Positions 16,782 to 37,204 of a DNA stretch of 64,000 nt are shown piece by piece. The DNA is from Thermococcus argininiproducens (lineage in GTDB: Archaea > Methanobacteriota_B > Thermococci > Thermococcales > Thermococcaceae), in contig NZ_CP080572.1 of assembly GCF_023746595.1 (NCBI RefSeq), positions 372,001 to 436,000 on the forward strand. Reading direction: 5' to 3'. Each line of letters begins with the position of its first letter. Positions within the stretch are counted from its first letter, which is position 1. The notes beneath the pieces were generated by a model. The model had not been told where the DNA came from. It worked only from the letters and a program-made list of their open reading frames with translations, and did not search any database. The position numbers were made by a program, and so were the translations under genes.

Positions 16782-18209
16782 ATTTCAATTCTATTATAGT
16801 CTTATTGGAACCGAGAGGAACTATAGTAGTTGATAGAGCTGGAATAGTCTTTCAATTCTATTATAGTCTTATTGGAATGACGAGAAGACAGCGAAAATGA
16901 TTAGAAAGCGCTATACTTTCAATTCTATTATAGTCTTATTGGAACCCGCTGTCAATGCATAGATGACCATCTCATCAAAACCTTTCAATTCTATTATAGT
17001 CTTATTGGAACTGCAACTATTGAGAACCTTATAAATCCTGAAAATTCTTTCAATTCTATTATAGTCTTATTGGAACCAGTATGACATGAGAATTGAGCCC
17101 GAAATAAAGACTACTTTCAATTCTATTATAGTCTTATTGGAACAAGGTCATCATAGTCATCAAGAATTTTAATTAAGTCACTTTCAATTCTATTATAGTC
17201 TTATTGGAACCGTGCTTGAGGATTTCCACAAGCTTTTCGATGTCAAAACTTTCAATTCTATTATAGTCTTATTGGAACATAATTCCAGCCCCGTTTGATC
17301 TGTTTCCTACGGCCACTTTCAATTCTATTATAGTCTTATTGGAACTGTCAGCGGCAAGTGCTATGATGAGCTTGGCAGGGAACTTTCAATTCTATTATAG
17401 TCTTATTGGAACTCCCACCAGTAGCTGTTTCCATAGCATCTTCCGAGCTTTCAATTCTATTATAGTCTTATTGGAACCTCCAAAGATGATAAGGCCTTGT
17501 GGCACGAGGTTTGACTTTCAATTCTATTATAGTCTTATTGGAACGGATATATGAATCAGAGCTTATGAACGGCAGGACAACTTTCAATTCTATTATAGTC
17601 TTATTGGAACATAACAATAGAGAAATTATCCTTAAGCGTAACTGAGCTTTCAATTCTATTATAGTCTTATTGGAACTACTGCATATAGTTCGCTAACATA
17701 TACAGCAGATTTCCTTTCAATTCTATTATAGTCTTATTGGAACTACTGCATATAGTTCGCTAACATATACAGCAGATTTCCTTTCAATTCTATTATAGTC
17801 TTATTGGAACTACTGCATATAGTTCGCTAACATATACAGCAGATTTCCTTTCAATTCTATTATAGTCTTATTGGAACATTAATGAATCCCTGTGTAAGCG
17901 TCAAGTAAGATGTCTTTCAATTCTATTATAGTCTTATTGGAACTCAAGATAGCCAGCCCGTCTGATGTCTTTGTATTCGTCTTTCAATTCTATTATAGTC
18001 TTATTGGAACAAAATGATTCCATGCGGTTCTTGCATTCCTATATCTCTTTCAATTCTATTATAGTCTTATTGGAACCTGAAAAGCAATTTTTCGTTGATT
18101 TTTTCTATCTCTCTTTCAATTCTATTATAGTCTTATTGGAACTAATCCTCAGCCTTTCAGCCCTTTTACTGTTTTACATCTTTCAATTCTATTATAGTCT
18201 TATTGGAAC
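16782..18209 (-). CRISPR. CRISPR array, 22 repeats and 21 spacers, read on the minus strand
   Basis: A 30-bp repeat recurs 22 times; on the minus strand it begins GTTCCAATAAGAC and ends AGAATTGAAAG, giving the ATTGAAAG 5' tag known for P. furiosus-type crRNAs, whose repeat it nearly equals. Spacers are 35-38 bp, mostly 37. Repeats start at 16782, 16849, 16916, 16982, 17047, 17114, 17181, 17249, 17316, 17383, 17448, 17515, 17581, 17647, 17714, 17781, 17848, 17914, 17981, 18047, 18113 and 18180. The leftmost repeat (plus-strand first base A for C) and the second (last base T for C) are degenerate, marking the trailer. The three spacers at 17677-17713, 17744-17780 and 17811-17847 are identical. 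No cas genes lie in the window. Confidence 0.98.
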
Positions 18210-35147: not shown

Positions 35148-36875
35148 ATGGGTGGGCTCTTCAAAAATGATTATGTAATAAAAGAACAGCCTTCACACAC
35201 TCAAGAAATTATTCAAAAAGGAGTGGACAAAGAGAGTCTAAATAAATTACTAGAGCGAATTAAAGAAGGAGATCTCCCCATAAAAATCAGAACACTTCAG
35301 ATATTGAATGAAAAGGTTAAACTTACTGATATAGAACAACGAAAGAGATTTTTAGAAGAAGGTTTGGAGACACTGCTAGAAAACCTCTTTGATGAAAATC
35401 AAAGAATCCAAGAACTAACCCTGAGAGTGCTGGAATCATTAATAAAGGGAATATCACTACCAGTTAACGCTTCCTTAAAAATTTTTGAAACAATTAGCAT
35501 TCCACGCATACTAGAGAATGATTTTGTATTCCTACAGCTTGCAAATACATTCAAAGCTTTGAAGTTCATAAAACCTCATCCGTCTATTTTAAACTACCTT
35601 ACTGAAATGACACTCTCAGGGGATGATAGAGTACGAGTCTTGGGAACATGGGGCCTCTGGAGGTTTTTGAATTCTACTAGAGATATCAGATCAACAGAGA
35701 TTCTGGAAGGGATTTTATCAAAGATCCCCAGTCTATTAGAGAGTGAGGATGAAACTGTGGTGGAAGTTACACTTGAACTTATCAAGGAGATTGCAACAAA
35801 ATACCAAGATTCAGGTGAGATTATCAAAAGATCCTTTGCATGGATAAAAGTCATGAAAGAAATTGAAAAATCTGGAAGCTGGCTTATAAGAAGCGAACTG
35901 AAAAGAACTATCAATTATCTCATTGAGCTTATCCGTGAATACTATCGTATGAGAATAAACGAATCATTTAGAGTACTGGAGGACTTAATTCAAGAAGAAA
36001 GGTATGAAGACGCCATGACTTTAGCTGGGATAATAGGCAATGAAGACATTATCAAATGGGTTTCTCAGAAGATAAAAGAAAACAAAAGAGAAAAAGAAAA
36101 AGGGATTGAAGGTCTCCCCAGATTAGTGAGTGGGCCCAAGTACCTTAATATCCCCTCCGACCTAACAGAAAAAACAATTTATATACCCAGTTTAAGCTCT
36201 CTAGCACTCAGAAAAAAGACAGTTGGAAATGATGGGAATGTAAATAGTAAATTTGAATTGAACAAAATGAAAAAAGATCTTTCAAACCTCATGACAAAAT
36301 TAAGGAGCAGTGATAGTGTAGAAATTATAGATGCTCTCTGGGAGCTTTATGAACTTTCTGATGAGATAAACTCCCAGAACGTAGAGGAGTTTAGACTTTT
36401 TGTTCCTGAACTGCTTAGAATTTTCTCTTCCACAAATAATGAATGGATGGTAGATAAAACTGCGAAAATTCTTGCAAAAATATTAGGTATCCTCCCAAAT
36501 TCACAAGAATATACAAATGATATCGCCAAATTCCTGTTTTTAGAAGATAAACACAAAATGAGAGCTCTAATTTTCTTTAAATATTATCTAAAAAACAAGT
36601 GGGACAAGAATGCATGGGAACTGATATTAAAATATTTGCCTAGATTACTCACAAAAAAGAAAACTGCAATATGGGCATTAGGAATCATAGAAATCATTAT
36701 CGATACCATCCCACCAGAGGAAACGGAAAGACTAAGGGAATTGATGGCGATTTTGGGGAGTCTAAACCCCAAAGTGCCAGAAATCATGGAAAGAAGAATA
36801 AAAATTTTGATTGAAGAAATAAACAAAAAATTAAAAGGCCAAAGAAACATAGAAAATTATGTAAAATCGGAATGA
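35148..36875 (+). CDS. HEAT/ARM-like helical repeat protein, unrecognised
   Basis: 575 residues, almost wholly alpha-helical, with repeated paired helices such as LTLRVLESLIKGISLPVNAS and VRVLGTWGLWRFLNST in the N-terminal half and LRIFSSTNNEWMVDKTAKIL in the C-terminal half, separated by a low-complexity linker (residues 310-385). This is the look of a HEAT/ARM scaffold; no catalytic motif. GGGGTGTGG precedes the ATG. Its TGA stop lies inside the C box of the sRNA that follows, and a coiled-coil gene comes next, suggesting a three-part unit. Confidence 0.7.
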   Translation: MGGLFKNDYVIKEQPSHTQEIIQKGVDKESLNKLLERIKEGDLPIKIRTLQILNEKVKLTDIEQRKRFLEEGLETLLENLFDENQRIQELTLRVLESLIKGISLPVNASLKIFETISIPRILENDFVFLQLANTFKALKFIKPHPSILNYLTEMTLSGDDRVRVLGTWGLWRFLNSTRDIRSTEILEGILSKIPSLLESEDETVVEVTLELIKEIATKYQDSGEIIKRSFAWIKVMKEIEKSGSWLIRSELKRTINYLIELIREYYRMRINESFRVLEDLIQEERYEDAMTLAGIIGNEDIIKWVSQKIKENKREKEKGIEGLPRLVSGPKYLNIPSDLTEKTIYIPSLSSLALRKKTVGNDGNVNSKFELNKMKKDLSNLMTKLRSSDSVEIIDALWELYELSDEINSQNVEEFRLFVPELLRIFSSTNNEWMVDKTAKILAKILGILPNSQEYTNDIAKFLFLEDKHKMRALIFFKYYLKNKWDKNAWELILKYLPRLLTKKKTAIWALGIIEIIIDTIPPEETERLRELMAILGSLNPKVPEIMERRIKILIEEINKKLKGQRNIENYVKSE

Positions 36876-36923
36876 TGAATCTGGAGCCCCCTGAGTGATG
36901 AGGAAGTTTCGCGGGGCTGACCG
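36868..36923 (+). ncRNA. C/D box sRNA (2'-O-methylation guide)
   Basis: Boxes in order: C ATGATGA (36872-36878), 12-nt guide, D' CTGA (36891-36894), C' GTGATGA (36895-36901), 15-nt guide, D CTGA (36917-36920). CGG before C and CCG after D form the terminal stem. The D' guide AUCUGGAGCCCC would target a GGGGCUCCAGAU-like site and the D guide a CCCCGCGAAACUUCC-like site, methylating the base opposite the fifth guide nucleotide. D' and C' are unusually close. The upstream ORF's stop codon lies within the C box. Confidence 0.8.
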
Positions 36924-36925
36924 TA

Positions 36926-37204
36926 ATGATAAAAAGAATCCTCTGTAAGGACCTCTATCAGGAAATAGAGAGACTTGAACGTTCTATTATTGAGCTTGAA
37001 GAAGAAATAATTGAGTTAAAAACCCAACTCAACATGAAAACAGAAGAAGCAACTAGTCTTTACATTGAGAACCAGAGCCTAAGGCACAAAATAGAAAGAC
37101 TAGAAAAGACACACAACCAGCTCATTGAAATGCTTAAGAAGATGAAAATACCATTTGTAGTAATTGATGAGGACGAATTCAAAGATATAGAAGTTGACAA
37201 ATAA
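36926..37204 (+). CDS. Small coiled-coil protein
   Basis: 92 residues forming one long heptad-type helix (ERLERSIIELEEEIIELKTQ, then ENQSLRHKIERLEKTHNQLI) and a short acidic tail ending DEDEFKDIEVDK. No recognised family. It starts three bases after the sRNA terminal stem and has only a poor RBS (GGGGCTGA, part of the sRNA D box), so translation may depend on the upstream HEAT-like gene. A partner role for that scaffold protein is plausible but unproven. Confidence 0.65.
   Translation: MIKRILCKDLYQEIERLERSIIELEEEIIELKTQLNMKTEEATSLYIENQSLRHKIERLEKTHNQLIEMLKKMKIPFVVIDEDEFKDIEVDK

What the first reader, a model, noticed from the sequence alone, without database searches (positions are those of the whole stretch)
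36868..36923. C/D box sRNA wedged between two protein genes, sharing the stop codon with one
All four boxes, a 12-nt D' guide and a CGG/CCG terminal stem are present. The C box contains the stop codon of the HEAT-like gene, and the next start codon is three bases past the stem. So the sRNA must be processed from, or compete with, the mRNA. Near-zero D'-C' spacing is unusual for an archaeal k-loop.
Basis: partly seen in the sequence, partly recalled or inferred. Interest (0 to 1): 0.55.

Follow-up and report, generated by a model that had tools for sequence, protein, structure and literature searches.

The report
Methylation-guide RNA inside a gene's leader
This is a real, already catalogued archaeal small RNA (sR23) that guides RNA methylation; it almost always sits at the start of the same small protein gene, so one transcript probably cannot make both the small RNA and the protein.

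Summary
The C/D box sRNA is real. It is Rfam sR23 (RF01138, 70.3 bits, cutoff 45), over the cutoff in 83 of 94 Thermococcaceae genomes. Its T. kodakarensis ortholog is published as an abundant, partly circular 62-nt RNA (PMC9014305 Table 1). The stop codon in the C box is real too, but occurs in only 4 of 63 loci and is a described arrangement. Two details change: the family-conserved C' box is 36898-36904, giving an ordinary 3-nt D'-C' spacer; and the mature RNA probably runs to about 36929, past the next start codon. The more telling feature is downstream: in 74 of 84 genomes with both parts, a conserved 92-aa coiled-coil gene starts 3-11 nt after the sRNA, and the D box with the preceding GGGG resembles that gene's Shine-Dalgarno sequence. 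Two other T. kodakarensis sRNAs show the same fixed adjacency (60 of 60 loci taken). Most likely the sRNA is the mRNA leader, and sRNP assembly and processing exclude translation (inferred). The D guide fits 16S rRNA in the family majority; the invariant D' guide has no detectable rRNA target. The RNA is known; the conserved leader architecture is the modest novelty.

The parts
36868..36929 (+). predicted mature sR23 C/D box sRNA (Rfam match itself 36870-36922)
   Evidence: RF01138, 70.3 bits; ends transferred from circular junction 1371729-1371790 of the T. kodakarensis ortholog, stated there as +/-5 nt
36872..36878 (+). C box ATGATGA, containing the TGA stop (36873-36875) of the upstream gene
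   Evidence: positions -1..+5 invariant in 38 of 38 loci with equal spacing
36879..36890 (+). D' guide ATCTGGAGCCCC (12 nt)
   Evidence: all positions but the first invariant in 38 of 38; longest rRNA Watson-Crick run 7, reached by 4214 of 5000 shuffles
36891..36894 (+). D' box CTGA
   Evidence: near-invariant
36895..36897 (+). 3-nt D'-C' spacer (k-loop)
   Evidence: family register of C'
36898..36904 (+). C' box ATGAGGA
   Evidence: RTGANGA conserved at +25..+31 in 38 loci
36905..36916 (+). D guide AGTTTCGCGGGG (12 nt)
   Evidence: family-majority form has a 12-pair Watson-Crick run to 16S 350-361, 12 of 5000 shuffles as long; window form 8
36917..36920 (+). D box CTGA
36913..36920 (+). GGGGCTGA, Shine-Dalgarno-like, overlapping the D box, 5 nt before the start codon
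   Evidence: duplex with 16S 3' end -7.3 kcal/mol; 54 attached loci mean -7.17, background mean -2.95
36926..37204 (+). 92-aa coiled-coil ORF for which the sRNA is the leader
35148..36875 (+). 575-aa HEAT-like ORF whose stop lies in the C box
   Evidence: only a weak Pfam HEAT signal, E 0.027
36831..36836 (+). TATA-like TTAAAA at -41 from the C box, inside the upstream ORF
   Evidence: the T. kodakarensis locus has TTTTTATT at about -42 and a published start site 9 nt before the sRNA

Best explanation
The element is sR23, a canonical archaeal C/D box 2'-O-methylation guide sRNA that forms the 5' leader of a conserved coiled-coil protein gene. Transcription starts just upstream of the C box and runs through the sRNA into the ORF. 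The D box with the preceding GGGG (GGGGCUGA) also acts as the ORF's Shine-Dalgarno sequence. If L7Ae and the other sRNP proteins bind the C/D k-turn, that sequence is buried; if the sRNA is then trimmed and circularised, the start codon leaves with it. One transcript can therefore yield the guide RNA or the protein, not both. Shown (here or in print): family identity, expression and circularity of an ortholog, fixed sRNA-to-start-codon spacing, protein-level selection on the ORF, a promoter-like element before the sRNA. Inferred: one joint transcript, the D box as Shine-Dalgarno sequence, mutual exclusion. The overlap with the upstream stop codon is a lineage-specific by-product of gene packing.
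For: RF01138 70.3 bits; 83 of 94 Thermococcaceae genomes over the cutoff. T. kodakarensis ortholog sR46/Tko-sR50: 176,232 aligned small-RNA reads and 188 circular reads in wild type, junction 1371729-1371790, start site 1371720 (PMC9014305 Table 1); the same genome's ORF begins at 1371787, inside that junction; genome identity supported by 16S position. sRNA-to-ORF gap 3-11 nt in 74 of 84 genomes with both. ORF dN/dS 0.01-0.15 in the 10 of 17 pairs where dS was not saturated. TATA-like hexamers in -36..-24 in 35 of 63 loci against 1-16 of 63 in six control bins. Anti-SD duplex -7.3 here, mean -7.17 over 54 attached loci, background mean -2.95. In g3 the five attached loci give -6.9 to -8.3 (four read GGAGCTGA next to the ATG) and the three detached ones only -3.6 to -5.0. 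Where the two have come apart, four sRNAs are followed by T-runs (G030, G042, G068, G070), and 7 of 9 ORFs read have a GGGG- or GGAGG-type site of their own. T. kodakarensis sR52 and sR61, with CTGAGGTG at the D box, keep the start codon at 0/-1 and 1/2 nt in 30 of 30 and 30 of 30 loci.
Against: In 8 of 84 genomes the ORF is detached and in 4 of 88 it was not found, so the sRNA does not need it. GGGGCTGA is kept in 4 of the 8 loci without an adjacent ORF, so it is not conserved for translation alone; in g5 the D-box duplex is weak (-4.4) with or without the ORF, and there GGTG after the D box is the likelier ribosome site. The attached energy is only near the 5th percentile of random 18-mers (-7.10). 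No joint transcript, translation or L7Ae effect was measured. Related loci share ancestry, so counts are not independent.
Confidence: 0.6

Rival explanations
1. sR23 is an ordinary housekeeping guide; it merely shares a transcription unit, and its place before the ORF is conserved only because separation would cost the ORF its promoter and ribosome site. There is no regulation.
For: The review says most archaeal C/D sRNAs lack own promoters and sit on gene edges; detached copies persist; two further sRNAs have the same layout, as packing would give.
Against: The spacing is nearly fixed across 6 genera despite large sequence divergence. The review reports that 5' overlap lowers downstream expression, so neutral retention is not obvious.
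Confidence: 0.34
2. The element is mainly a cis-acting L7Ae-binding k-turn in the leader (like the l7ae leader), and the small RNA is a by-product.
For: L7Ae represses mRNAs with leader k-turns that mask the Shine-Dalgarno sequence (PMC5539422 passages); PMC4247193 suggests some predicted 5' snoRNAs may be cis elements; the D' guide has no rRNA target.
Against: The T. kodakarensis RNA is abundant and circular; all four boxes and two 12-nt guides are kept; a 12-bp 16S complement is kept in the family majority; sRNAs without the ORF keep the boxes.
Confidence: 0.06

Closest known systems
Rfam RF01138 sR23 (C/D box sRNA)
   Same: Sequence, boxes and guide layout; 70.3 bits against a cutoff of 45.
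   Different: Nothing structural; the D guide here has one mismatch to the 16S site that the family majority matches.
T. kodakarensis sR46 / Tko-sR50
   Same: Ortholog at the same distance before the same ORF.
   Different: No overlap with an upstream stop codon there.
C/D sRNAs overlapping ORF ends (Tripp 2017, seen only through the review PMC7994747)
   Same: Stop codon in the C box; start codon after the D box.
   Different: The review describes 5' overlap as rare (7%) and costly; here the adjacency is kept in 74 of 84 genomes.
L7Ae autoregulatory leader k-turn (PMC5539422)
   Same: A k-turn adjoining the Shine-Dalgarno sequence in a leader.
   Different: That element is a simple k-turn, not a full two-guide sRNA that is excised and circularised.

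Membership tests
Archaeal C/D box guide sRNA, sR23 (RF01138) | covariance-model score over curated cutoff | tested here: met
   70.3 bits, cutoff 45
Archaeal C/D box guide sRNA, sR23 (RF01138) | C, D', C', D boxes with about 12-nt guides and a terminal stem | tested here: met
   guides 12 and 12 nt, CGG/CCG stem
Archaeal C/D box guide sRNA, sR23 (RF01138) | at least one guide with an rRNA or tRNA complement including the +5 position | tested here: inconclusive
   family-majority D guide meets the 9-bp rule of PMC4644070 at 16S G351; this genome's form reaches 8 bp. D' guide: no rRNA match better than shuffles; best tRNA duplex matched by 11 of 200 shuffles for the window form, 45 of 200 for the majority form. 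Orphan guides occur in accepted members
Archaeal C/D box guide sRNA, sR23 (RF01138) | accumulates as a small RNA | not testable with these tools
   not measured in this organism; published for the T. kodakarensis ortholog
L7Ae-regulated mRNA leader | k-turn overlapping or next to the Shine-Dalgarno sequence | tested here: met
   by sequence only: D box lies inside GGGGCTGA, 5 nt before ATG
L7Ae-regulated mRNA leader | translation falls when L7Ae binds | not testable with these tools
   needs a reporter assay

The most novel reading that the evidence does not exclude
Thermococcales hold a class of dual leaders in which the D box of a C/D sRNA is the Shine-Dalgarno sequence of the next gene, so that guide-sRNP assembly is a switch: free sRNP proteins turn the transcript into a guide RNA, their shortage lets the ORF be translated, linking rRNA-modification capacity to several proteins. 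The invariant, rRNA-orphan D' guide of sR23 would then have a non-rRNA target tied to this regulation.
Probability: 0.17. Interest if true: 0.7.

Novelty: new variant of a known kind. Interest (0 to 1): 0.45.

Why it matters
A guide RNA and a protein encoded by the same start region, in a fixed arrangement kept across an archaeal family, is a ready test of whether C/D sRNP assembly regulates translation in nature. It also shows a guide sequence (D') that is invariant yet has no rRNA target, the reverse of what drift of an orphan guide would give. The finding as first listed (stop codon shared with the C box) is by itself ordinary.

Tried and rejected
Rejected: near-zero D'-C' spacing (family register gives 3 nt). 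Rejected as a reason for D' conservation: internal pairing of AGCCCC (D' guide) with GGGGCT (before the D box); most g3 and all g5 loci break one or two of the six pairs without any change in D' (read), and the leader's MFE is no better than shuffles (z 0.42).

No D' target found: 16S, 23S, pre-rRNA flanks, 45 tRNAs, SRP RNA, RNase P RNA, 5S with flanks; a genome pattern search with one mismatch gave 10 places, one of them sR23 itself, not followed up. Weak candidates not adopted: tRNA-Gln C32 (A-C mismatch at N4), tRNA-Leu (G-U at the +5 position), 16S C435. By duplex energy alone even the family-majority D guide is not exceptional (21 of 100 shuffles as good); its support is the 12-bp uninterrupted run (12 of 5000), of which 3 pairs use C' box letters, leaving 9 inside the guide.

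Pfam/NCBIfam give the ORF only a YabA-like coiled-coil match (30.9 bits, cutoff 30; no NCBIfam cutoff reached), so no function is claimed. A genome-contig scan with the ORF profile returned 17 loci, all named Thermococcus, Thermococci or Thermococcaceae.

A paper search on sR23 with Pyrococcus found none. The statement that the D box/Shine-Dalgarno overlap was not found in print rests on searches only; Tripp 2017 itself was not seen. Papers: PMC7994747 (passages and section 9), PMC9014305 (passages and section 15 with Table 1), PMC4247193, PMC4644070 (abstract too), PMC5539422, PMC5316973 (passages only).

Limits: stop-overlap and promoter counts used 63 loci out of 88 genomes with a strong match, the gap count used all 88; sR52 and sR61 controls used the 30 best-scoring loci of 83 and 68 genomes with a match, mostly one genus; one of 20 control sRNAs (sR58) was masked. 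In one search the script picked a wrong CTGA for L022.

Full report
What is there. The upstream 575-aa ORF ends with the TGA inside the C box, and a 92-aa ORF starts at 36926.

Corrections. Aligning 38 loci with equal spacing shows the conserved C' box three bases further on than the zero-spacing register: 36898-36904. That gives two 12-nt guides and a 3-nt D'-C' spacer, an ordinary layout. The sequenced T. kodakarensis ortholog has its circular junction at 1371729-1371790 (PMC9014305 Table 1, section 15 read). The genome carrying it in my searches, G024, has its 16S at 2022864-2024352, inside the 16S circular RNA 2022801-2024382 of that table, so the coordinates agree. In that genome the downstream ORF match begins at 1371787, inside the junction. 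Other circular sRNAs of that table end 6-10 nt after the D box where the script read the true D box, so this end is not unusual. Transferred here, the mature RNA is about 36868-36929 and holds both a stop codon and a start codon.

Distribution. A search of 94 Thermococcaceae genomes found RF01138 in 90, over the cutoff in 83. Leaving out the weak 20-25-bit matches, 88 genomes have a strong one. The stop codon of a long upstream frame falls exactly in the C box in 4 of 63 loci, all in this genus; one further locus of the genus has it in the C' box. A review (PMC7994747, section 9 read) reports stop codons within about 25% of archaeal C/D sRNA genes, almost half of them in the C box, so this part is known.

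Downstream linkage. Searching the same 94 genomes with a profile of the 92-aa ORF found it in 85, and 84 have both. In 74 of 84 the ORF match starts 3-11 nt after the sRNA match, in 2 more at 19-20 nt; in 5 it lies 133-3482 nt further on, and in 3 elsewhere. Four of the 88 sRNA genomes gave no ORF match. The ORF is under protein-level selection: dN/dS 0.01-0.15 in 10 pairs; in 7 further pairs dS was saturated. A TATA-like hexamer lies 24-36 nt before the C box in 35 of 63 loci, against 1-16 of 63 in six control bins. The window and T. kodakarensis have theirs at about -41, and in T. kodakarensis the published start site is 9 nt before the sRNA. The sRNA therefore looks like the start of the ORF's transcript.

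The D box as ribosome site. The 3' end of 16S reads GATCACCTCC(T). GGGGCTGA, that is the last four D-guide letters plus the D box, pairs with it at -7.3 kcal/mol, 5 nt before the ATG. Over 54 attached loci the mean is -7.17; 400 random 18-mers from the window average -2.95, with the 5th percentile at -7.10; the upstream ORF and alaS (ATG 37307) give -8.8. In genus g3, attached and detached copies differ: the five attached loci give -6.9 to -8.3, four of them reading GGAGCTGA next to the ATG, and the three detached ones -3.6 to -5.0. When ORF and sRNA have come apart, four sRNAs are followed directly by T-runs, and 7 of 9 ORFs read have a GGGG- or GGAGG-type stretch next to the ATG. Against this, GGGGCTGA is kept in 4 of 8 loci that lack an adjacent ORF, and in g5 the D-box duplex is weak in attached and unattached loci alike (-4.4), where a GGTG after the D box is the likelier site.

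A wider pattern. Of 19 other circular T. kodakarensis sRNAs that could be read (20 taken, one masked), three have an ATG-started ORF of at least 60 aa within 2 nt of the 3' end: sR29, sR52, sR61; five carry the stop of an upstream frame. For sR52 and sR61, whose D boxes read CTGAGGTG, the start codon keeps its distance in 30 of 30 and 30 of 30 of the best loci. PMC4247193 (passages) already counts 11 potential snoRNAs in 5'-UTRs and 12 in 5' coding regions of T. kodakarensis, so leader sRNAs as such are known.

Guides. With a 12-nt D guide, the family-majority form has nine Watson-Crick pairs including +5 to 16S around G351, and 12 if C' letters are counted; 12 of 5000 shuffles reach 12. The window form has one mismatch and an 8-bp run, which 2059 of 5000 shuffles reach. 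Several relatives have quite different D guides without a clear target. The D' guide is invariant over 11 of its 12 letters in 38 of 38 loci, yet its longest rRNA run is 7, which 4214 of 5000 shuffles reach. PMC4644070 (abstract and passages) reports about one third of sRNAs (163 of 489) without significant rRNA complement, so orphan guides are common; an invariant orphan guide is the odd part.

Mechanism. L7Ae binding to a leader k-turn is proposed to mask the Shine-Dalgarno sequence in the l7ae mRNA and lowers its translation (PMC5539422, passages). Here the D box, one strand of the k-turn, would itself be part of that sequence. I therefore infer that sRNP assembly blocks translation, and that excision and circularisation remove the start codon. 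No experiment here tests this. The plainest rival is dense packing with no regulation; I give it about one third.

Noticed in passing
window 16782-18209, - strand: CRISPR array: 22 RF01319 (CRISPR-DR6) repeat matches.
   Followed up: no
L138 and L022 (G076 contig 5): sR23 is joined to the inside of alaS at a shared GGGCTGAC, and the coiled-coil ORF lies 3.5 kb away with its end fused to another reading frame; rearrangement or assembly error.
   Followed up: partly
L065-L070: A second C/D-like RNA in g3 and g5 genomes, matching only positions 2-41 of RF01138 (20-24 bits), with a different, conserved D' guide (ATACGGGGCCACCTGA type).
   Followed up: no
L071 (G071): A copy of only the first half of sR23 with an upstream flank like that of L027, perhaps a partial duplication.
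   Followed up: no
T. kodakarensis loci L152, L154, L145: sR52, sR61 and sR29 also end at a start codon; CTGAGGTG at the D box of the first two reads as a Shine-Dalgarno sequence.
   Followed up: partly
L060 (G060): The downstream ORF keeps its place but the otherwise conserved Cys7 is Tyr, and the D-guide core is replaced while GGGGCT stays.
   Followed up: no
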